DNA of 59,712 nucleotides. Origin: Tubulinosema ratisbonensis (Eukaryota; Microsporidia; Tubulinosematidae). Location of the stretch: positions 1 through 59,712 of the forward strand of contig RCSS01000483.1 of the NCBI GenBank assembly GCA_004000155.1, read 5' to 3'. The position numbers were made by a program, and so were the translations under genes. Each line of letters begins with the position of its first letter. The stretch's first letter is position 1. The notes beneath the pieces are model-generated. The model was not told the origin of the DNA. It worked only from the letters and a program-made list of their open reading frames with translations, and did no database searches. Below, piece after piece: positions 735 through 49,640 of the stretch.

Positions 735-816
735 TGTCGATGTAGTATTTAAAAGTATTATTTTATACCCTTAATTTTTATGGAGTTAAATAACGAAGAT
801 ACTTTTAAACTCGATA
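735..816 (+). repeat. Solo LTR of the 82-bp-LTR gypsy family
   Basis: This 82-bp copy matches the LTRs at 8376-8457 and 12076-12157 with only a few substitutions. It begins TGTCGATGTAG and ends AAACTCGATA, so its ends form a short imperfect inverted repeat (TGTCGA and TATCGA). It is flanked by GATAA (730-734) and AATAA (817-821), a likely 5-bp target duplication with one change. No primer-binding site or gag follows. It therefore looks like the product of LTR-LTR recombination that removed the body of a former element. Confidence 0.85.
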
Positions 817-8335: not shown

Positions 8336-8375
8336 AACTACAAAGCAAGTACCAACGTAACTAATAAATCTAAAT

Positions 8376-8457
8376 TGTCGATGTTGTATTTATAATTATT
8401 ATTTTATACCCTTAATTATTATGGAGTTAAATAAAGAAGATACTTTTAAACTCGATA
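8376..8457 (+). repeat. 5' LTR (82 bp)
   Basis: Boundaries are fixed by the TAAAT target duplication on the outside and the TGG of the primer-binding site on the inside. It begins TGTCGATGTTG and ends AAACTCGATA rather than the usual TG...CA. The conserved centre includes ttttataccc and atggagttaaataa. Promoter, start and polyadenylation signals would all have to fit in these 82 bp, which is unusually short for an autonomous element. Confidence 0.92.
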
Positions 8458-9180
8458 TGGCGTCAGCAGCTAAGCTCATTTCCTTATTCACAGGCACCAA
8501 AGACGAAGATGTAAACATTTGAATAAGAGACTTTGAATTTAAAACATGTGCAGGAAACATCCCCGTGAACAATCATTGAGACTAATGATCTGTTGCGTAA
8601 ACAGAATCGCATTGTTATGGGCATCAGCGACATACAATGCAATCCATATGTTAACATAACACAGTTTAAATCGGCTCTGAGCATACGATTTTCTTCAAAA
8701 AGAGATGTGATCAAATTTTAAAAGAGATTTATTCATTTTAACCTACAAATATCGCAGAATATTTTGATTTATTGGAGAAAATTACGTACTTATTCAATAA
8801 AAACTACTTACCATCGGAAGCATTGTGTGACATACTAATAACAAAATCCTTAAAGAGTTAAGGGCAACACTGTGCTAGCTCAAAAAAGAAGGAAAAACCT
8901 GGACAGAAATCTACAAAACCGTAGAAGAACTAATTTCGGTTTTTTTCACAAATGATAAAACTCAGAAATTAATCAATAAAAATAATATTGATTTTAATTA
9001 ATCAAATAACAATGAATTTGAAATTAATTTTTTTTAAAAAGAAAAGAATGTAAAAAGATATTCAAATACTCAAAAACAAGGGAGGAATGTATTGTACACG
9101 GTTATTGTAATTACACAACTGATGAATGTTTATTAATAAAAAAATTAAAGAATCTTGGCATTGTTAAAAACGAGAATTTT
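8457..9180 (+). pseudogene. Degenerate gag (capsid/nucleocapsid)
   Basis: The likely start ATG is 8457-8459: its A is the last LTR base and TG opens the primer-binding site. The first 21 codons read MASAAKLISLFTGTKDEDVN and then Ile. A TGA at 8520 follows, where related Gag proteins have Trp before I-R-D-F. Further on, ITQFKSALSIRF in another frame fits a Gag core helix. Near the end C-I-V-H...N-Y-T-T-D-E-C (9088-9129) is a nucleocapsid zinc knuckle of the C-x2-H type common in gypsy elements, with a probable zinc His changed to Tyr. Multiple stops and frame changes mean no functional Gag is made. Confidence 0.75.
8458..8469 (+). other. Primer-binding site for reverse transcription
   Basis: TGGCGTCAGCAG follows the LTR with no spacer. 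TGG pairs with a tRNA CCA tail, so the primer would be a tRNA ending CTGCTGACGCCA. I cannot identify which tRNA because no tRNA gene is in this window. The site also lies inside the first codons of gag. Confidence 0.65.
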
Positions 9181-9855
9181 GATGGAAAAAATAGGACCAA
9201 CAATCAGAATAATAATTTGTTTAAAGTAAATAAAACTAAGTACATCTATTCTTGTTTTTTAAGACACAAAAATTTAAATCCTTTTTATGTTTATGTAAGC
9301 TTAAATAATAATAAGCATCTTGCTTTGTTGGATACAGGAGCCGAATTTAGCATCATAAATCAAAAAATTTTTAAATCCTCTTCAAACGTCACAAATAAAA
9401 AAATAATATCAGCAAGTAGGGATGAACTCACAGTTACTGAAGTTTGTAAAAATTTTGGGTTGAAAATACATGATAAAAAGTTTAATAATGATTTTTTTAT
9501 CACAAAAAATTGTTCTGAATATGTCATTTTAGGCAGTGATTTTATCTTAAATAACTTAGAAGTACTACGTTCAATCATCAACAAAAACAGCAATAGGACA
9601 GATATGAACAATAAAAGTAATCAATGCAATACAACAACCATGACGAAATTAGAGCTCGAAGAAGATGTTAAGAGCTTAATTAACGAATACAAATCTGTTT
9701 TTAAATGCAATATAGACCATCATAATTATTGCAAAACAGGTCAACATACTATTGTAACAACATCGGAAACTCCTATAAAACAATCTAATGGCAAAATTCC
9801 ACTATTTTTGGAGCAAGAAATTGACAAAGAAGTTCAGAATCTATTACATACATGA
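9028..9855 (+). pseudogene. Protease and N-terminal pol segment, still open
   Basis: An uninterrupted frame runs from the zinc knuckle through an aspartic protease into the RT linker and stops at TGA 9853-9855. The protease active site is LLDTGAEF (Asp at 9331-9333), preceded by a beta-strand VYVSLNN. The companion ILGSDF block (about 9526-9543), which matches the I-L-G-x-D-F motif of retropepsins, is also intact. After it comes a linker with INEYKSVFKC and TPIKQ, typical just upstream of gypsy RT. Of all the pol domains here this is the best preserved. Gag knuckle and protease share one frame, so this family probably made a single Gag-Pol polyprotein rather than relying on frameshifting; that is an inference from a mutated copy. 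Confidence 0.8.
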
Positions 9856-10460
9856 ATTATAAGGAAATCAAGAAGCCTTTGGCGAAGCAGAATAGTACCT
9901 TTAAAAAAACCTTATGGCTCATTGAGATTGTGGATTGATTATAGACCACTAAATAATGTTACAATAAAGGATCAATACCCTTTACCAAGAATTATTACAT
10001 ACTAAATTCATTAAGAAACTCTACAATATTTACGTCTTTGGATGTCACCAAAGGTTACTTTCAAATAAGATTAGAAAAGAAATAAAAAAACAGCATTTTC
10101 TTGGAAAAATGGACTGTATGAATTTAACAAAATGCCCCTCGGTCTGTGTAACGGACCGTCGAAATTTCAAAGGATTATGGACATCGTGTTGGGAAAACTC
10201 AGTGCCTCGTATGTCTGTTGTTATTTTGATGATATATTATACATTCTAAATCAAAATAACAGCACTTGCAACATATAAAAAACATCTTGAATGCTTTATC
10301 AGAGGCCAACATACTTATAAACCTTGATAAATGTAAGTTTATGATAGAAAAAACTTAAATACTTGGATACTAAATAAAAAAAAATTCAATTAAACCAGAT
10401 GGTAGAAGGTCGAGGCAATGCAGAGCATACAAAACCTGTTAATGCAGAGGAATTGAGATA
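9856..10460 (+). pseudogene. Reverse transcriptase, broken
   Basis: RNA-directed DNA polymerase of gypsy type. Landmarks in order are KKPYGSLRLWIDYRPLNN (fingers), SLDVTKGYFQIRL containing the first catalytic Asp, KMPLGLCNGPSKFQRIM, and CYFDDILYI with the paired catalytic Asp at 10228-10233. Then comes LINLDKCKF of the thumb. Breaks include the TGA just upstream at 9853, a frameshift near 9990-10010 and a TAA near 10082. All three catalytic Asp codons survive, so damage is confined to the reading frame. Confidence 0.88.
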
Positions 10461-10479
10461 TTTTAGGTTTTTTAAACCT

Positions 10480-11075
10480 ATGCCAAAAATTTATTAAAAA
10501 TTTTAGCAGAAAACACATTTGTTATATGAACATTTAAAAAATAAAAAATCAAATAGCACAGCTATCATAAATTGGAACGAAAATAGCTTAAAGCAATTTA
10601 GAAATATTAAAAATGAAAGTCAAAAAGAAATGATCAAAATACAGCTAGTTTTAAGAAAAGAATTTATATTAACTACTGGTGCCTCTAATATTGCAATCGA
10701 AGCAGTACTATCTCAGAAAAATGACGAAGGTAAGGAAGTAGTTATTTCTTGCTAAGCAAATGTTTAAGCAATTGTCAAAAAAATTATAGCATTGCCGATA
10801 AGGATTTATTAGCTATTAAAAAGTCCACAGAGCATTTTAAACAATATTTATTAGGCAAACAATTCCTGCTTATAACAGACCATAACGCACTAAATTAAAT
10901 AAAAGAATCTAAAAATTTGAATGAAAAAATATTTAGATGGTCACTTAAACCTCAAGACTATGAATTTAGAATAAAATACATACTAGGCGCAGATAATCAA
11001 GCCGACTGTTTAAGCGGAATCAACAATATTGATTCCATAAATAACATAATTAAAAAGAAAATTATAAATGATTAA
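10480..11075 (+). pseudogene. RNase H, broken and with an active-site change
   Basis: Tether and RNase H of the gypsy pol. The start of the domain reads FILTTGASNIAIEAVLSQ, where the family has T-D-A-S: the catalytic Asp is Gly (GGT at 10678-10680). After a frameshift near 10755 come DKDLLAIKKS, ITDHNAL with Asp at 10878-10880, and GADNQADCLSG, matching the N-x-A-D-x-L-S-R end. TAA stops near 10896 and 11072 interrupt it. It is recognisable across nearly 200 codons but catalytically dead even apart from the frame breaks. Confidence 0.85.
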
Positions 11076-12086
11076 GAAGCAAAGCACGATATTTTAAAAC
11101 ATTATCATTTTACTTTAGGATATGGATCAAAATTAAATATGTATTACAACTTAAAAGGAAAGTACTCTTGGAAGGATTATACAATGACATAAAATATTAC
11201 ATAAAGAAGTGTGATATATATTTAAAGTCTGGATATGAACAAATTAATACTAAAAACAAGATAATTAATACCTCACAAAGAAATGAAATGTGGCAAGTAG
11301 ATCTCATAAGATATCTATACAAAACGAGGAACAATAATAAATATATACTTGTGCAATAGACCATTATACAAAGTGGCGTGAGGTAATCGCAATCAAAGAA
11401 AAGAATTCTAAAAGGAAAAGTGATGCACTTTACAAGATTGTTTACGAAAAACATGGAATACCTGAATTTATTGTCTTCGACAACGGATTGGAATTCTCAA
11501 ACAAAGAAGTTAGATCGCTTGAAAAGGATTCTAATTGTGAATGGCCATTTAATTCTTTAGGAAATCATTTTTCGGTCGGGGCAGTCGAAAGAGCAAACCA
11601 AACACTGCTTAATAAAATAAAAAAATTATGTGACTTTGGCAAAAGCGAATAGGATTCAGTCCTGGACGATGCTGTTTCTGCTTATAATTACTCTTATAAT
11701 AGAAGCATATCAATGTCTCCTTTTGTACTTAATAAGCTACATTTACCAATACTTCCTATTGATTGTAAACATGGATTAGCTCCAAATATGCTATCTAGGG
11801 ATGAAATAGTGAAAAAAAGAGACAAATATTTTGCAATTTATGCAAAAAAACATATTGAAAGAAGAAAGAAGCAATTTTTTAATAATTTAAAATCATCGAT
11901 AAAGTTCTAGTATACAGAAGACAGATGGAAAAGAAATTAAAAAACAATTGGATTCCGGGATATGTTATTAAACAAAAAGTTAATGATGATTCTTATCTTG
12001 CTGAGAGTATTAATTCAAAATTAAGGGTCAGCAAAAAACACTTAAAACTTAATACAACAAAACTAAGCGAAGGGGTATCGATGTAG
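11076..12086 (+). pseudogene. Integrase, broken, ending inside the 3' LTR
   Basis: The order is an HHCC zinc domain, an rve core and a C-terminal region. The zinc pair reads C-D-I-Y (11210-11221), so the second Cys is Tyr. The catalytic triad is intact: WQVDLI (Asp 11300-11302), FDNGLEF (Asp 11479-11481) and GAVERANQTL (Glu 11587-11589). Exactly 35 residues lie between the second Asp and the Glu. One frameshift near 11355 (after YILV), a TAG at 11650-11652 and another frame change near 11908 interrupt it. The last frame runs through WIPGYVI and LRVSKKHLKL to TAG 12084-12086, nine bases into the 3' LTR. Confidence 0.88.
12069..12075 (+). other. Polypurine tract
   Basis: gaagggg sits immediately before the 3' LTR, where plus-strand DNA synthesis is primed. 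It is also within the end of the integrase frame. Confidence 0.75.
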
Positions 12087-12157
12087 TATTTATAATTATT
12101 ATTTTATACCCTTAATTTTTATGGAGTTAAATAAAGAAGATACTTTTAAACTCAATA
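12076..12157 (+). repeat. 3' LTR (82 bp)
   Basis: Differs from the 5' LTR at four positions (second base G to A, tenth base T to A, an A/T change near the middle, and G to A four bases from the end). It contains the pol stop codon at LTR positions 9-11 and is followed by the TAAAT duplication. Confidence 0.92.
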
Positions 12158-12162
12158 TAAAT

Positions 12163-14753: not shown

Positions 14754-16532
14754 TTAATCTTCCAAGTCGTATTTTTGAAATAGCTCTTCAATGTTTTTAC
14801 CAAACAATTCGTTTTCTTTAGTAAATGACAGATCGTCAACATAAAAATCTTCTTGTACATTCTTCTTTGTTTCTTCTCGTGGCTGGATCCAATCGTCAAT
14901 TGTAACCAATTTCATATCATACCTATTCCAGGTTTTAATGAATACTTTATCACTTCCCGATATTTTTAATAATACATTTTCATTGTTCTCTAAAATCTTG
15001 TTCAACCCATAGCCTTTATAATCAGGTTCATAATATTGTATTGTATCATTACCATTAAATAAAACTATATAATCATTTAGAGTTTTATAGTTTTTGCATC
15101 TTAAACAATATAAATCCATGATCGGGATAATATTGGGTTCGTTTTTATCGCTGGTAGCTCCCAATATTTCATCCTTCATTTTTATTAAGCTGTTGGCATT
15201 ACGAAGCGGAGTTTTTATTATGACATTTCCTGTATATCCAAGGCTGATTCTTTCAGGTTCGTTCATAAATTTTATATAAACACTGTGCTTCTTCATATAT
15301 TTTTGTATATTTTTACCCCCATATCCAATAAGCTTCTTGTGTTCCTTTTCTTGCACAAAAAAGTTTATCTCCATCGGCTTTTCTTGATTTAACAGATAGA
15401 GTGTTTTTATTAACTTTTTTGATAATCCCGAGATTTCAAATTCTATCCATTCATCCTTTACGCTAGTCTTTATGCTTACGCCGGTTTCTTTTAAAATTTT
15501 CTGCAACTTACTTTGACCTTTTGGGTTTTTAAATATTTCTTCATAGTCTTTATTTGCACAAAAACTTATTTTAGATATTGATTTATCTAAACATAAAATC
15601 TCTATGATTTTTTCATAAGATCCTATAAGAATGTATTTGTTTTCAGTTTTAAATATAAATATATTATCTACTAATGGTGGTTCGAAAACAATTTCACAGT
15701 AAAATACATTAAAATATATATTACATATTTCTCTTAAACAAGATTTAAATTGAAGTTGGTTGTTGCCCATTAATATAACCTTTTTATTTTCACTAAAGGT
15801 TAATTTGCACTTGTTAAACGATAAAATATCATCAATTTCATTCCTAAAATAATATAAACAATATTTAAAAGATAAAAAATTAAAATGATATTCTTCTTTA
15901 TATATTTTGTCAGAATAGTCATTCAATAAATAAGATTGATTCTTGTATTTTTCTAATGAAAAGGATTCGATTGAGGATTCATTTTCATGCATTAAAACAA
16001 GTAATGCCTTTTTTGTGTTCACTAAATTATCATAAATTGGAAACAACCCGCTTTCATAGATGAAAGTGATGTTTCTTTTTTCTACTTCAATGTATTTTAT
16101 TTTTAAAAAGTCACAAATTATTTTATATACCTCTAATCTAGCAACATCTACCATCTCGCATCTTCCATATAAATGTACAAAAACACTATCACATATTTGT
16201 ATTGCTACAAGAACATCCTTTATATTAGTTTTTAAGGTTCTAAACAAATAGTTCTTAATATCATATAATATTACTGGAACTTCAACCATAACATGTTTAA
16301 AATCTAAAAAGAAATTTATGTCAGCAATTTTCTTTCCATGTAACTTAACTATTAATTTATTATTATTTAATTCCACTATTTCTATTCTTTCTAGGTTTGA
16401 CGTTACAGTTAACATGTCCTTAATTTCTGCTTTTAAACATCTTGGTAAAAATGTATTTGTATTTATGGAAAAGAAAATTTCAATTTTTGTTTCCAATTCA
16501 ATATTTTTGTCTACATTTTTAAACATTTTCAT
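14754..16532 (-). CDS. KH-domain RNA-binding protein (vigilin/Bicaudal-C-like), 592 aa
   Basis: An intact, intron-free gene. The clearest domain is a KH fold at about residues 385-460: HKKLIGYGGKNIQKYMKK carries the canonical GxxG loop (GYGG, residues 403-406), followed by VYIKFM. Just before it, NPKGQSKLQKILKETGVSIK (about 336-355) looks like a second KH unit with a degenerate loop. The segment from about 60 to 125 (VEVPVILYD...) also has KH-like spacing, suggesting tandem divergent KH repeats as in vigilin or Bicaudal-C proteins. KH domains bind single-stranded RNA, so a role in mRNA translation, stability or localisation is likely but inferred. C-L-R-C near residue 478 is a lone cysteine pair. 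The tail is acidic and no signal peptide or membrane segment is seen. I chose the ATG at 16532; the frame is open one codon further to a TTG. The stop is TAA. Confidence 0.9.
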   Translation of the reverse strand: MKMFKNVDKNIELETKIEIFFSINTNTFLPRCLKAEIKDMLTVTSNLERIEIVELNNNKLIVKLHGKKIADINFFLDFKHVMVEVPVILYDIKNYLFRTLKTNIKDVLVAIQICDSVFVHLYGRCEMVDVARLEVYKIICDFLKIKYIEVEKRNITFIYESGLFPIYDNLVNTKKALLVLMHENESSIESFSLEKYKNQSYLLNDYSDKIYKEEYHFNFLSFKYCLYYFRNEIDDILSFNKCKLTFSENKKVILMGNNQLQFKSCLREICNIYFNVFYCEIVFEPPLVDNIFIFKTENKYILIGSYEKIIEILCLDKSISKISFCANKDYEEIFKNPKGQSKLQKILKETGVSIKTSVKDEWIEFEISGLSKKLIKTLYLLNQEKPMEINFFVQEKEHKKLIGYGGKNIQKYMKKHSVYIKFMNEPERISLGYTGNVIIKTPLRNANSLIKMKDEILGATSDKNEPNIIPIMDLYCLRCKNYKTLNDYIVLFNGNDTIQYYEPDYKGYGLNKILENNENVLLKISGSDKVFIKTWNRYDMKLVTIDDWIQPREETKKNVQEDFYVDDLSFTKENELFGKNIEELFQKYDLED

Positions 16533-44374: not shown

Positions 44375-44842
44375 ATCGCATTTTTTACATATAATTGTGT
44401 TAAATGTACATTTTCCACATGAATATTTTTTACATTTAGAGTAAGTTTTAATGGTTGAATTTCCTTTGCATATCCTGACAAGTCATACGTATATAGACAT
44501 CTGTATTAGACTTGCGGCACAATACTTTCGTATTTGTTTCTTTTTTTAATTGTTCACGGACTTCTCAGTAATCGGCGCTATCTTCTTCTGCTAGCATAAG
44601 CATAAAATCGTATGCAGCGATATTTTCTTTGATCATTTGCTTGTATAAAAACCAAGAATTTATGCTGGCTAAATTAAGGATATTTAAAAAACTTGGGGGA
44701 CTATCTTCAAGGCCCGATTCTGTAGTAATTTTCTGAATACTTTATCAGCCAGGTCTCTTTATAATTTGGTTTATTGTAAATAAAACAGGGTTAGGTTAAG
44801 ATTTGTCATCGTTTTCTACTTTAAAAAGTTTACGTATATGGC
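44375..44842 (-). pseudogene. piggyBac-like transposase, C-terminal half (split by gypsy insertion)
   Basis: Minus-strand reading gives ILNLASINSWFLYKQ (about 44680-44637), matching the conserved F-F-x-x-x-x-D-I-A-x-x-N-S/A-x-x-L-Y-K helix of piggyBac transposases. Further downstream a cysteine-rich tail reads SKCKKYSCGKC...IICKKCD (about 44440-44375), like the zinc-binding C-terminal domain that binds transposon ends. Catalytic-core sequence that should precede this lies beyond the gypsy element at 48703-49640, in the same orientation. Frame changes and stops are present. Terminal inverted repeats and TTAA targets were sought and not found. Confidence 0.7.
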
Positions 44843-45051
44843 TGTTCTATAGACTTATATTTTAAAATTTAAGAATATTGATTTTAGATTTTATTCATAA
44901 GGGTTTCCTTAGTAAACTGGGGCCTAAAATGATTTATATTGTGTTTATATATATTTAACATTAGTAATACGATTTTCTCATTTGAATCTTATTTTATTGT
45001 ATTTTCTATAAATTTTATGTTAGATCAACTGATTTTATTTGACGTATTACA
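44843..45051 (-). repeat. 3' LTR of the old gypsy element (209 bp)
   Basis: On the plus strand it begins TGTTCTATAGACTTATATTT and ends GACGTATTACA. It shares blocks such as acttatattttaaa, ttaagaatattgatt, agtaaactg and gtgtttatat with the copy at 48529-48702. Confidence 0.8.
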
Positions 45052-45062
45052 TTCTTCCCTTC
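45052..45062 (-). other. Polypurine tract of the old gypsy element
   Basis: The minus strand reads GAAGGGAAGAA directly upstream of the 3' LTR, the expected plus-strand primer position. Confidence 0.7.
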
Positions 45063-45389
45063 GTGAAAAGGTTAAAATTTCTTAAATTAGCCAAAAGCAC
45101 TCATTCTATTCCGAATTTTTATCTTGCTATTACAATTTGAGCATTTAGCAATTTCACAAAGTTCTCATGCAAACTTAAGTTTTTTTTTTGCTATATTTTT
45201 TTACATAAGCCTTTTTCCAACTATAAAAACTATTAGGTTTTAACTCATTCTCTAAGCTTTAATAACTTGTACATCCAAGTATTTTTTATCAATAGCTTTT
45301 TTATTTTCTTCTATTCTTTTTGGGGTGTTCATAATATAAAAGTTAACAGTCTCGGTATGCACTTTAAATTTTATCATTTATAGAGTTTT

Positions 45390-46000
45390 TTTATTTAATT
45401 TTAATGAATTCTAAGTATAAGTCATATTGTTGAGTTTATTCGTTCGAATACTGCGTTCCATTGAGGGTAATAGGTACTCGTCCTTAAATGTCTAATTTTG
45501 TTTGTTTTAATAAAGCTCGAGTCTTTAGTGCTTATAAAATCTTCCATAATGCTAATGAATGTTTTAGGGTAACCAAACAACTCATTCTTTTAATATGATT
45601 GTATCAAACCCATGGCTGTTGTAGTTTTATCAAAGCAAATCTTAGTATACCTGATGCAACTATCATTTAATATTATGATAAAGATCTTTTTACAAGTTTT
45701 AAGATTGTTTTTTGATAATCACAGAACCATAAATATCTAGACTTATGTCTGTTTTAACAACTTCACCGGATAATCTTCGATATGCTTTTGTGTATTTGTA
45801 ATAATCAGGCTTGTATTTTAAGCAATCAATGCAGGATCTTATCGAGTTATAGATTATTTGCCTCATATCTTTAGTTATATCGAAATTCCGTACCATAGTA
45901 CAGAGAGTTTTCTTATAACCTAGATGTTCGTATTCTTGATTAAATATGTTATGATATTTCTCAAAGATAATAGGGCTAAAATATTTAAAATTTTAACTAA
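45390..46000 (-). pseudogene. Integrase of the old gypsy element, broken
   Basis: The zinc domain keeps SCIDCLKYK (about 45838-45812). The first catalytic Asp is in VKTDISLDIYGS (about 45760). After stops and frame changes, TSTYYPQWNAVFERINSTI (about 45472-45416) carries the catalytic Glu at 45445-45443. The middle Asp block is blurred, reading FISIMEDF where F-I-S-D-x-G is expected. The longest unbroken part is the 65-codon frame ending at 45699. Confidence 0.75.
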
Positions 46001-46400
46001 CTCGTCTTTTTTTTGATTTATGGCAGGGCGAAAAAGAGTCTGCGTATAAATTATTCTTGCCGAGTGTATAATTATAGTTAACTTCAAGATCGCTTATGAG
46101 TGCTTTTTTACTATGTATCTTTTTTGAATAGTTGTAGTTGCTATTAATTTAATTTTTAAAATCTGTATACACAATTTTTTTAAACTTCCTATTATACATT
46201 TCCAGTTGTTTAATTTAGAATGAATTGTGTAAATTTCTTTCGTTATTACTATATCTTTGTTGGTTGTTGTCAATAAATTGACAAAAATGGCCAATCAAAC
46301 GATCATTTTGTTCAAATGCTGCACAGTATCCTTTTTCTGATGCATCAATGTACAAAGTAAATTTCTTATTAAAATCGGGAAAATACACATCTGTTTCGAT
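46000..46400 (-). pseudogene. RNase H of the old gypsy element, broken
   Basis: FTLYIDASEKGYCAAFEQND (about 46361-46302) has the first catalytic Asp intact, QRYSNNERNLH the Glu, and VYTDFKN a TD pair. At least one stop and one frame change follow. Unlike the 8.4-kb element, the active-site residues are preserved here. Confidence 0.75.
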
Positions 46401-46499
46401 AAAGGTTCTTCATATGTATTACATATAACTTAAATTTTCTTTGAATTATCCTTCGACTTGTCATATAAATGCCTTATTTGCGGGCTTAGATTGTGTATA

Positions 46500-47140
46500 A
46501 AATTTTTATACCCTTTTAATTTTCATAAAAGTTTCTGTAGTTGTTTTCTAGTTGTAGGGTTTCCATTAGGTGAAGTCTTCAAGTCTTGTTTTATCCGGAT
46601 AATAGCCGTTTTTGAATAATATTAATCCCAGATAATTCAATTCGTTTGTACAAAAAATACACTTATCTAGACTTATTATAACATTTTTATCTGAAAAACG
46701 TTTAAAAACTCTTTTTAAAATCATAATATGTTTGTCATTAGTTTTTGAAAATGCTAAAACATCATCCACAAAGACTATCGCATTTTCTATATCAGATAAG
46801 ATGTCTATAACTAGGTTATAAAAAATTTCGGTGCGTTTACGAGTCCAAAAGCAAGACGATTAAATTCGAATTTCCTATAATAAGTGTCAAACGCAGCTTT
46901 ATCTCTATCCTTTTCATGTATAAGTACCTGATAGAACTCTTTTTTTAAATCTAACTTGAAGAATAACTTTATACCCTTAAGGTAATTGAAACATTCATAT
47001 ACGCTGGACAAGTTATACTGCATTATCTAACAGATTTTGTTCATATAGTGGTAGTCAACTAATATTCGTGCAGTTTTGTCATTCTTCATTTTAATAAAGC
47101 ACAAGGAACATTTAATTATTTTGATTTTCGAATTATGTTA
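46500..47140 (-). pseudogene. Reverse transcriptase of the old gypsy element, broken
   Basis: Order on the minus strand: IKMKNDKTARILVDYHYMN (fingers, V-D-Y-R-x-L-N block), then a stop, then LFFKLDLKKEFYQVLIHEKD with the first catalytic Asp. Next is FNRLAFGLVNAPKFF, then AIVFVDDVLAFSKTN (VDD at 46769-46761) and VIISLDKCIF in the thumb. A frame change separates the segment ending at 46811 from the one beginning at 46769. All catalytic Asp residues are present, but reading-frame breaks prevent a product. Confidence 0.85.
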
Positions 47141-47539
47141 TTTTGTACGAATTCATCTAATTTATTTTTAAGATCTTAGAGTTTGAAAAATGGTATATAG
47201 TAGAACTCTTTATTCGGTATTTGATAAGTAGATAATGGTATTTCAAACAGTGTACCTTTAAGTTAACTGTTGATTTATCTTCAAGCTATACTACTTAATC
47301 ATGTTAACTTCATTGTTTAAGTTAATATCTCTCATTTCTTGAAAAATATGTATGTCATTAACCGCTTTTTCTTGATTATAAATTTTGGTTTTAATTGTAA
47401 TCGTGTTCTCAGGATAATTTAAATTACAACAATCGAGTTTTAGAAAGCCGTTACTTAGGATTAGCTTCTTGTTATTATTTTTCATAATTTTTATTTTAAA
47501 ATCTTTGCATATTATCTCTGAACCTTTTCAAAATGTAAC

Positions 47540-47720
47540 TTTAGTATAATTATCAACAAAGTTTTCTGCTCCATCAGCCATCTTTACTGTTGTTAATCAT
47601 CTTCTCTTTTTTGCATTTACCTTGATATATTATTTCTTCACTAATATAAGATTTAGTTGCGCCCGTGTCGATCAAGGATACAAAATCAAGATTTTAATTA
47701 ATTCTTATTTTTAATAAATG
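47540..47720 (-). pseudogene. Protease of the old gypsy element
   Basis: VSLIDTGATKSYI on the minus strand (Asp codon at 47669-47667) is a classic retropepsin active-site loop. The remainder of the domain is out of frame. An open linker with LDCCNLNYPENTITI follows at about 47291-47485, towards RT. Confidence 0.7.
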
Positions 47721-47769
47721 TAAAGTCGAGCATTTATTACTGTTTATTGAGTTGGGTGGTTTTTAAGCT

Positions 47770-48440
47770 TTCCACTATGAAATTCGTTTCTAATTTCTTT
47801 GCAAGACATTCTTTCGTGATGTGGTTCCTAGATTTGTGGTGCTTGCTCACTTTTGTTTATTATAACTTGTAAGTGATTTGATTTCTATTTTTGAGCTGGT
47901 TTGTAAAAGCAAAGTATTTTTAGTAGTTTTTATTCTCCTATTAATTTCTTTGTAATCATTAACTCCTTCTGAAGCCAATTTTAATATTACTGCCTTGTCT
48001 AAGCCTCTTATAAAATTGTATTCCTCCATGTTGTTTGGTTTTCTATTTGTAGGGTTTGACTGGCTGTAATCCTTTTAATTATCCCTTGCATCACACTTAT
48101 ATGTTCGTCGATCGCAGTAAAATCTATTTGAAAGACCCTGTTAAGTCTCTGATTTAATTGAAATCTTATTTCTTAAATATTTTAGTTTCAACAGCCTGTC
48201 TAAAATACTTTCTCAAATATTTATTTTACTTTTAGTATTTTAAGTTCATCTTGAATGACATTTTCTAAGACTGCTAGTGACGTTTTGTAATCCCAGTTAG
48301 CTAGCTTAGATGTTTCTTTAAAGTTCTCTATCCATGTGAATAAATCGTTATCTAGTGAACTAAGATAGAATAAATCTCGTTATAGTGTAATTGATGTGGT
48401 CGGTATCATATAGTTTATAGTACACCTTTTCGCAATTTCG
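47770..48440 (-). pseudogene. gag of the old gypsy element
   Basis: LDNDLFTWIENFKETSKLAN and then WDYKTSLAVLENVIQDEL (about 48360-48253) fit a Gag capsid N-terminal helix set (W-I-x-x-F ... W followed by a leucine-rich helix). Near 47840-47800, SKHHKSRNHITKEC is a nucleocapsid zinc knuckle in which the first two Cys positions have become Ser and His. No intact start codon can be assigned with confidence. Confidence 0.6.
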
Positions 48441-48528
48441 TTCGTGGTGGCCGGTGAGGAACTCGAGATGGAGTCAAATTCTGCAAGTGTATCTCTTATT
48501 GTCTGGAACTTGTTCGTTAGTATCAACA

Positions 48529-48702
48529 TGTCCTATCCAAAGGACTTATATTTTAAAGAATTTAAGAATATTGATTTGCATACTTTATTCATTGTTTTTT
48601 CCTAGTAAACTGTACCATGAAATAACCTTTCTTGTGTTTATATTTCTTGACATTAATTTTACACTTTTAGCACTTGAAATTGATTTGATTTGACGTATAA
48701 CA
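48529..48702 (-). repeat. 5' LTR of the old gypsy element (174 bp)
   Basis: On the plus strand it begins TGTCCTATCC and ends GACGTATAACA; on the minus strand the element therefore starts TGTTATACGTC. Immediately inside, the minus strand reads TGTTGATACTAACG, which does not have the usual TGG of a tRNA 3'-end primer site. Either mutation removed it or an internal tRNA region was used. Confidence 0.8.
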
Positions 48703-49640
48703 GATATCAAGTAAAAGTACTTTTTTTGTTTCTTGCTTAAATAAATTGTAAGAGTACAATTATCTGCTGTAAAAATTTTCGATTATATCGTTATATATCA
48801 TCTTTCTTTTTCTTTGTAGTTAGTGGTGGTTCTTCTTTATTTGACCAAATAGTTCATTTAATGTAGTTTTTAGCAAGAATTTTTGTTGCTAGAAATTTGA
48901 TTGAGATGAAGTTGTCTGTGTTCCAGTTCCTCTGCAACCCGTAATGGCTTAATGAGTTCGAGTACAATATATTTAGAGTGTGGTACTAAAGAGGACCTAT
49001 ATTAATATTTTCTAGGAAATAGAAGAGCATATATGATGTAATTGCTATCGACGCCTGATACTAACCAAAATTAGATTCTATATTTAGCAGGTTTGTTGGG
49101 CATGTATTGAGCGAATTCACATCATACTTTAGTCGTGAATAGCCGTTTGTTTAAAGTAATATTTTCAACTGGTTTGAAATAGTTTGAACTATTTTTAGTA
49201 GAAAAATTTAAATTGCAAATACCATAGGGGGTCTATCAGTTTTTTTACGTTGGACCGCTAACTTTTTTGATCAAAATAATTAAATCCAAGTTTCTTGGTA
49301 AAATTATTTCTGCTCATAGTTTTAAAAAAATTTTAGACCCCAAATGTTATTACAAAAAAGAAAATATTCAAATTATTTTCTCCATATGCAGCTTGTGCAT
49401 ATAAATTACATTAAATACATCTAATTTTTATGATAAACTCTAATTAGCAACTAACACTCGCTTTTCTTCTTCTTTGTAATTGTTCTTATATAGATCTACA
49501 TAAAGTGGTAAACTATCAGTCTGAATGCTGTAAAATTTTTATTTCATTTTATGAAGTTGATCATACTGTCGGGTCTGGTTATTACCTGAAATTTTATAAG
49601 GTCGTGCTCTTCCACGTGTACCAACTACTTGCATTTATTG
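48703..49640 (-). pseudogene. piggyBac-like transposase, catalytic half (split by gypsy insertion)
   Basis: Minus-strand landmarks of the piggyBac DDE/D core in order: ENITLNKRLF (about 49166-49137), where the family has a D-E pair, so the first catalytic Asp is Asn. Then FAQYMPNKPAKYRI, a stop, and FWLVSGVDSNYII (49116 downwards), the hallmark Q-Y-M-P-x-K-P-x-K-x-G-I-K block. Then NTDNFISIKFLATKILAKN (about 48922-48866), matching D-N-F-Y-T-S-x-x-L-A-x-x-L with the second catalytic Asp kept (48916-48914). Last is WSNKEEPPL, matching the R-x-N-R-K-x-x-P block. An N-terminal stretch near 49600 reads VVGTRGRARPYKISG. The C-terminal half resumes at 44842 beyond the gypsy insertion. Confidence 0.8.

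What the first reader, a model, noticed from the sequence alone, without database searches (positions are those of the whole stretch)
8371..12162. Ultra-compact gypsy element: 82-bp LTRs, gag ATG at the LTR/PBS junction, pol stop inside the 3' LTR
The TAAAT target duplication fixes the LTR at 82 bp, very short for an element encoding all five enzymatic and structural domains. The gag ATG (8457-8459) uses the last LTR base plus the first two bases of the primer-binding site. The last pol frame ends at TAG 12084-12086 within the 3' LTR, and the polypurine tract is inside integrase. There is essentially no untranslated internal DNA. If the transcript starts within the 82-bp LTR, the 5' leader would be only tens of bases, which constrains how such elements transcribe, package and translate.
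Basis: partly seen in the sequence, partly recalled or inferred. Interest (0 to 1): 0.75.

Follow-up and report, generated by a model that had tools for sequence, protein, structure and literature searches.

The report
Retrotransposon gene running LTR to LTR
A decayed jumping gene in what looks like a microsporidian parasite has terminal repeats of only 82 letters, and its protein gene appears to start inside the first repeat and end inside the last, so that promoter, start codon, poly(A) signal and primer site are packed into about 100 letters.

Summary
The element (8376-12157) is a decayed Ty3/gypsy retrotransposon with 82-bp LTRs, an exact TAAAT duplication, a primer site touching the LTR and a pol stop 11 nt inside the 3' LTR. 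The primer site is complementary over 13 nt to the host's tRNA-Ser(UGA). A second copy (contig C231, about 92% identical) has open gag and pol frames and the same 3' end. A solo LTR (C67, 81 bp, exact TAATT duplication) supports the length.

One correction: the junction ATG (8457) is probably not the gag start. An in-frame ATG lies 36 nt upstream inside the LTR (8421), 12 nt after a CCC, the motif that precedes many microsporidian genes. Three database polyproteins (two from Pseudoloma neurophilia) share the design: 13-16 residues, then MASA or MATA, as the tRNA-Ser primer site would read. All four leaders contain Asn-Lys, here the AATAAA signal itself.

Best reading: a microsporidian element type whose reading frame runs from LTR to LTR, with an almost leaderless RNA. 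Gag starting before the primer site is known from Ty1. No transcript ends were mapped. Novelty: new variant of a known kind.

The parts
8371..8375 (.). target-site duplication TAAAT, left
   Evidence: read directly
8376..8457 (+). 5' LTR, 82 bp, TG...TA
   Evidence: length supported by C67 solo LTR with exact TAATT duplication
8405..8411 (+). TATACCC: putative microsporidian core promoter motif (CCC), predicted end of U3
   Evidence: CCC at -12 from ATG 8421; 10 of 25 host ORFs have CCC at -20..-1 against 0 of 25 at -60..-41; motif described in PMC2803860. CCC kept in 3 of 6 LTR matches
8421..8423 (+). probable gag start codon inside the LTR
   Evidence: in frame with gag; ATG present in 5 of 6 LTR matches; leaders of similar size in P0058, P0121, P0122. 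Use not shown
8421..8456 (+). 12 gag codons encoded by the LTR (MELNKEDTFKLD)
8430..8435 (+). AATAAA, putative poly(A) signal, read in frame as Asn-Lys
   Evidence: read directly; AATAAA in 4 of 6 LTR matches; Asn-Lys in the leader here and in the 3 relatives
   Evidence: no CCC within 20 nt upstream
8458..8470 (+). primer-binding site TGGCGTCAGCAGC, 13 nt complementary to host tRNA-Ser(UGA) with CCA; read in frame as (M)ASA
   Evidence: L033 tRNA-Ser 3' end
8421..9258 (+). gag, broken by stops in this copy
   Evidence: tblastn with C231 gag; open 269-aa frame in C231
9256..9780 (+). protease region
   Evidence: PF00077; tblastn 90%
9781..11015 (+). reverse transcriptase and RNase H, broken
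   Evidence: PF00078, PF17919; tblastn
11088..12083 (+). integrase, broken
   Evidence: PF00665, E 9e-6, below its cut-off in this copy; tblastn
12069..12075 (+). polypurine tract GAAGGGG inside the integrase frame, abutting the 3' LTR
   Evidence: read directly; same in C231
12076..12157 (+). 3' LTR, 82 bp, 4 differences from the 5' LTR
12084..12086 (+). pol stop TAG, LTR nt 9-11; TAG in C231 and the window solo LTR, TGA in C67
12158..12162 (.). target-site duplication TAAAT, right
   Evidence: read directly
735..816 (+). solo LTR of the same family, 94% identical to the 5' LTR

Best explanation
This is a decayed copy of a microsporidian Ty3/gypsy LTR retrotransposon whose reading frame runs from inside the 5' LTR to inside the 3' LTR. 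Shown: 82-bp LTRs, 5-bp target duplication, a tRNA-Ser(UGA) primer site touching the LTR and lying inside the gag frame, an in-frame ATG 36 nt upstream in the LTR, a pol stop 11 nt into the 3' LTR, and a matching N-terminal design in three relatives. Inferred: transcription starts just after the CCC motif (about 8412-8420), so the RNA begins less than 10 nt before ATG 8421. The RNA is polyadenylated after AATAAA near the LTR end, so U3 is about 36-44 nt, R about 25-45 nt and U5 short or nil. Minus-strand strong-stop DNA would be about 38-46 nt. The LTR can be this small because microsporidian promoters and leaders are themselves only a few tens of bases.
For: LTRs and duplication; another insertion with exact duplication; primer site against the host tRNA; C231 copy with open gag (269 aa) and pol (953 aa) frames ending at the same LTR stop. 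The LTR ATG is present in 5 of 6 LTR matches, and the pol stop in 4 of the 5 LTRs that cover it (TAG, TAG, TAG, TGA). Database polyproteins begin MQEQQPNNNKFNYD-MASA, MEQEAEKNKLHFD-MASA and MQDKIHGETNKSLNNN-MATA; their gag parts align with the C231 gag at 28-33% identity. Host ORFs: CCC within 20 nt upstream in 10 of 25, against 28 of 862 window ATGs. In Encephalitozoon cuniculi, RACE of a few genes gave 5' leaders under 7 nt, most genes have a CCC-like motif just before the start, and the usual AAUAAA lies about 20 nt before cleavage (PMC2803860, passages and section 7).
Against: No RNA data. CCC itself is present in 3 of 6 LTR matches (absent in C231, C67, C162) and AATAAA in 4 of 6. 15 of 25 host ORFs, both window ORFs among them, lack CCC. 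The 5' LTR of C231 is off its contig, so only one full-length copy shows the LTR-gag join in DNA. For the relatives only proteins were seen, with start codons chosen by annotators; that their leaders lie in LTRs is inferred from the primer site adjoining the LTR. N and K are common residues, windows of their own gag hold Asn-Lys at rates of 0 to 0.17, and the Asn-Lys match was noticed after the fact.
Confidence: 0.75

Rival explanations
1. Gag starts at the junction ATG 8457; the open frame upstream in the LTR is leader sequence.
For: The ATG is present in both copies, and conservation with relatives is clear from it onward (M1 A2 A4 K6 invariant in 4 sequences; the C231 row starts there).
Against: No CCC within 20 nt upstream. 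Three relatives have an in-frame Met 13-16 codons earlier. Leaders mapped in E. cuniculi run under 7 nt (PMC2803860), which would put the transcript start at the very end of the LTR, leaving almost no R. MASA conservation is expected anyway if those bases are the primer site.
Confidence: 0.18
2. The 82-bp LTR is a shortened or degenerate form of an originally longer LTR, and the apparent compactness is decay.
For: The window copy is clearly decayed and LTR sequence has decayed at C162.
Against: Five of the six LTR matches share the same ends, at four separate places, two insertions with exact duplications; the C231 copy with open frames has the same short 3' LTR and the same coding overlap.
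Confidence: 0.04
3. The element is transcribed from a neighbouring host promoter or by read-through, so the LTR needs no promoter of its own.
For: Transcription overrun was reported in E. cuniculi (PMC2803860, passages).
Against: An LTR element must start its RNA inside the LTR to give R at both ends (established knowledge); the TATACCC and AATAAA arrangement suits that.
Confidence: 0.05

Closest known systems
Microsporidia-specific Ty3/gypsy groups (Parisot et al. 2014, PMC4202319; passages and section 13 seen)
   Same: Ty3/gypsy pol, one polyprotein; named pol relatives among the best hits are Nosema granulosis, Pancytospora philotis and Pseudoloma neurophilia
   Different: The parts seen do not describe LTR length, primer site or where gag starts; supplements were not available
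Pseudoloma neurophilia pol polyproteins (P0121, 1210 aa; P0058, partial)
   Same: Homologous gag, same leader-then-MASA start
   Different: Only protein records seen; LTRs not seen
Ty1 of yeast (PMC5454406, passages seen)
   Same: 53-nt 5' UTR, then GAG; primer site at RNA nt 95-104 inside GAG, so gag begins before the primer site
   Different: Ty1/copia, different pol order and LTR of about 334 bp (recalled); leader several times longer than predicted here; tRNA-iMet primer
Mag lineage of Ty3/gypsy
   Same: Short LTRs and often tRNA-Ser primer sites: Culex Mag elements 119-304 bp, Ser or Leu, one Arg (PMC3286476, passages); Bombyx mag LTR of about 77 bp is recalled, not found in the library
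   Different: Placement in Mag was not tested; gag starting in the LTR is not described in the passages seen
Anncaliia algerae Pol polyprotein with a GGG motif before its start codon (PMC4072689, passages)
   Same: A microsporidian retroelement carrying a host-type promoter signal
   Different: Read there as domestication; the link to LTR layout is not made in the passages seen

Membership tests
Ty3/gypsy LTR retrotransposon (Metaviridae) | pol order protease, RT, RNase H, integrase | tested here: met
   positions; Pfam
Ty3/gypsy LTR retrotransposon (Metaviridae) | RT closest to Ty3 among solved structures | tested here: met
   4ol8 (that it is Ty3 RT is recalled) and 7q5b (named Ty3-G Gag-Pol) best, E 5e-83 and 1e-82
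Ty3/gypsy LTR retrotransposon (Metaviridae) | LTR pair, tRNA primer site, polypurine tract, short target duplication | tested here: met
Ty3/gypsy LTR retrotransposon (Metaviridae) | gag capsid domain | tested here: inconclusive
   PF03732 E 0.0022, below its cut-off; a gag homologue (P0122) carries the precomputed PF14893 domain (its name, PNMA, is recalled and its position not seen)
Microsporidia-specific Ty3/gypsy group | single gag-pol reading frame | tested here: inconclusive
   open across the gag-protease join in the window copy, two overlapping frames in C231, single frame in P0121 and P0122
Microsporidia-specific Ty3/gypsy group | clusters with microsporidian elements in a tree | not tested
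   best hits include named microsporidia; no tree was built
Ty1-like design (gag start upstream of the primer site) | in-frame start codon inside the LTR | tested here: met
   ATG 8421 present and in frame; its use is not shown
Ty1/copia | integrase before RT | tested here: not met
   integrase follows RT
TRIM (miniature LTR element) | no coding region | tested here: not met
   coding throughout
Mag lineage | clusters with Mag elements in a pol tree | not tested
   no tree was built

The most novel reading that the evidence does not exclude
Microsporidia host a conserved class of retrotransposon with essentially no leader: one reading frame from LTR to LTR, an LTR that is at once host-type minimal promoter, start codon and first gag codons, with the AAUAAA signal translated as Asn-Lys and the tRNA-Ser primer site translated as Met-Ala-Ser-Ala. 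Strong-stop DNA would be about 40 nt, and packaging and dimer signals would lie wholly in coding sequence.
Probability: 0.5. Interest if true: 0.72.

Novelty: new variant of a known kind. Interest (0 to 1): 0.6.

Why it matters
LTRs must hold promoter, terminator and repeat region, and the leader is usually thought to need room for packaging and primer signals. This element suggests how little is needed when host promoters and leaders are minimal, and that primer-site and poly(A) bases can be kept as codons. It may also give a practical rule: a short leader followed by MASA marks where gag begins in such polyproteins. LTR finders with a usual minimum LTR length of about 100 bp (recalled) would miss these elements.

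Tried and rejected
Gag of C231 as a database query found nothing at E 0.001; the link came through the partial P. neurophilia protein P0058. Scans of viral contigs with the RT piece and with an RT alignment confirmed 0 of 2 and 0 of 8 pattern stretches as relatives. The genome-contig scan confirmed 3 of 29 stretches, at 33-36% identity in contigs labelled as bacteria, not used. A pattern AATAAA + gap + ATGGCGTCAGCAG in viral contigs gave 8 stretches; the best ungapped copy of the 40 nt upstream was 21-23 of 40 in all 8, so I read none as an LTR element. The one-mismatch primer-site hit at C65 lies inside a 257-aa open frame of the other strand and the pattern read backwards also gave one match, so I took it as chance. 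A microsporidian SSU rRNA search found none in this assembly, while it rang in 9 of 14 control genomes, so the host is called microsporidian from pol relatives, promoter grammar and composition only. The other RNase H matches in the genome (25 in all, 3 in the window) were not followed to their LTRs: seven of those loci, each only part of an element, and the C67 and C162 stretches gave no direct repeat of 50 bp or more, nor did the C89 stretch, partly N, of 40 bp or more. Considered: an LTR of 78 bp ending at CTC, which would fit the solo LTR at 735 with an exact GATAA; rejected because the full-length copy then has no adjoining duplication. No tree, structure prediction or selection test was made.
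Full report
WHAT IS THERE. The window is contig C163 of an unnamed 4.12-Mb assembly in 236 contigs; its 2-kb windows range from 18 to 29% GC. At 8376-12157 lies an LTR retrotransposon with 82-bp LTRs that differ at 4 positions and an exact 5-bp repeat TAAAT outside them. Protease, RT, RNase H and integrase pieces lie in that order. The RT of the better kept copy is closest to Ty3 among solved structures. Its best 120 database hits (of 1958) include named proteins of Nosema granulosis, Pancytospora philotis and Pseudoloma neurophilia, besides unnamed ones and, lower, animals and other fungi. This copy is dead: 8457-8861 read in one frame holds nine stops, and pol is split over several frames.

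COPIES. The LTR has six matches in the genome (a lower bound by the tool's own note): the two of this element, a solo LTR at window 735-816, the 3' LTR of a second copy on C231, one on C67 and a fragment on C162. The gag and integrase ends of the element matched in only two places, here and on C231. The C231 copy is cut by the contig start two bases before the primer site. It has a 269-aa gag frame and a 953-aa pol frame, overlapping and in different frames. In the window copy the gag-protease join lies in one open frame, and two relatives are single proteins of 1210 and 1221 aa. The two copies are 92% identical (3436 of 3737 aligned bases in five pieces that overlap by 44 bases in all).

LTR LENGTH. 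The C67 LTR is flanked on both sides by TAATT and is 81 bp. The solo LTR at 735 has GATAA and AATAA, 4 of 5. With the exact TAAAT of the full-length copy, this fixes the end at GATA or AATA. A 78-bp LTR ending at CTC would suit the solo LTR slightly better but leaves the full-length copy without an adjoining duplication.

PRIMER SITE. Bases 8458-8470 (TGGCGTCAGCAGC) are complementary over 13 nt, CCA included, to the 3' end of the host's tRNA-Ser(UGA) gene (locus L033). tRNA-Ser(AGA) (L038) fits over 8 nt only. The tRNA search listed 30 matches, having scored 63 of 315 candidates, so other isoacceptors may be missing. The site touches the LTR with no spacer.

WHERE GAG STARTS. The frame stays open upstream, and an in-frame ATG lies at 8421, so the LTR would add MELNKEDTFKLD before MASAAKL. 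The LTR ATG is kept in 5 of 6 LTR matches; the C162 fragment has lost it, and the C231 3' LTR is shifted in frame after it. Three lines favour 8421. First, the host follows the microsporidian rule of a CCC just before the start: 10 of 25 ORFs of at least 150 aa (mechanical ORFs from non-transposon loci) have CCC in the 20 nt before the ATG, 1 of 25 in the next 20 nt and 0 of 25 at -60 to -41, against 28 of 862 for all window ATGs. ATG 8421 has CCC at -12; ATG 8457 has none within 20. Against this, 15 of 25 host ORFs lack the motif, and only 3 of 6 LTR matches keep a perfect CCC. Second, three database polyproteins begin with 13-16 residues followed by MASA or MATA: P0058 and P0121 of P. neurophilia and P0122 from a contig labelled Clostridium. 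Their gag aligns with that of C231 at 28-33% identity. [quoted passage not shown] A start at 8457 would then put the transcript start at the LTR end and leave almost no repeat region.

POLY(A) SIGNAL AS CODONS. AATAAA at 8430-8435 is in frame and reads Asn-Lys. It is present in 4 of 6 LTR matches (TATAAA in C231, AATAAC in the solo LTR). Asn-Lys also occurs in the leader of all three relatives, 4-5 residues before the MASA or MATA Met, and 7 residues before it here. With residues drawn at gag composition, the chance per leader is 0.05 to 0.11, product about 2e-5; windows of the same length in their own gag hold Asn-Lys at rates of 0, 0.08, 0.14 and 0.17. The four are related, two are from one species, and the match was noticed after the fact, so this is suggestive only. 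A cleavage site about 20 nt after AAUAAA (PMC2803860, section 7) falls near the LTR end. The same section warns that microsporidian poly(A) signals are often degenerate or loosely used.

THE OTHER END. The pol frame runs through a purine run, GAAGGGG, into the 3' LTR and stops at LTR nt 9-11: TAG in the window 3' LTR, C231 and the solo LTR, TGA in C67. The window 5' LTR has TTG there; C162 does not cover it.

HOW IT WOULD WORK (inferred). RNA starts between CCC and ATG, within about 10 nt; ribosomes start at 8421 and read through the primer site into gag and pol; the stop lies 11 nt into the 3' LTR and the RNA ends near the 3' LTR end. U3 is about 36-44 nt, R about 25-45 nt, U5 short or nil, and strong-stop DNA about 38-46 nt, against 94 nt implied by the Ty1 primer site at RNA nt 95-104 (PMC5454406, passages). 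Packaging signals would have to be coding. The short LTR then reflects how small microsporidian promoters and leaders are.

WHAT IS KNOWN. Gag starting before the primer site is known from Ty1 (53-nt 5' UTR; PMC5454406, passages). Short LTRs with Ser or Leu primer sites are found in the Mag lineage (Culex, 119-304 bp; PMC3286476, passages). Microsporidian Ty3/gypsy elements are described with one polyprotein (PMC4202319, passages and section 13). [quoted passage not shown] My ten paper searches, judged from titles, abstract beginnings and the passages opened, showed no paper describing gag starting inside the LTR of a microsporidian element; subscription papers, such as one on Nosema bombycis elements seen only as a reference, are mostly not in the library, so this is weak.

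VERDICT.

Noticed in passing
window 44800-48750, minus strand: A second, older LTR retrotransposon with a different pol (RT at 47086-46578) and LTR-like repeats of roughly 180-190 bp, about 75% identical over the 150 aligned columns, so this genome also seems to host elements with longer LTRs.
   Followed up: partly
L056, L062, L065 (contig C172): An RT about 60% identical to this family, interrupted by RT sequence at about 37% identity: apparently nested insertions.
   Followed up: no
genome-wide: 25 RNase H matches, many fragmentary or with stops, in a 4.1-Mb assembly: many decayed Ty3/gypsy copies.
   Followed up: no
P0017, P0025, P0028, P0030, P0034, P0122: Ty3/gypsy proteins filed under bacteria (Aeromonas, Bacteroidales, Bacillus, Clostridium MAGs) that look like eukaryotic, perhaps microsporidian, contamination.
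   Followed up: no
window 14754-16532, minus strand: 592-aa KH-domain protein (PF00013, E 2e-7), one of only two ORFs of 130 aa or more with an ATG start in 59.7 kb: by this measure a gene-poor contig for a microsporidian.
   Followed up: no
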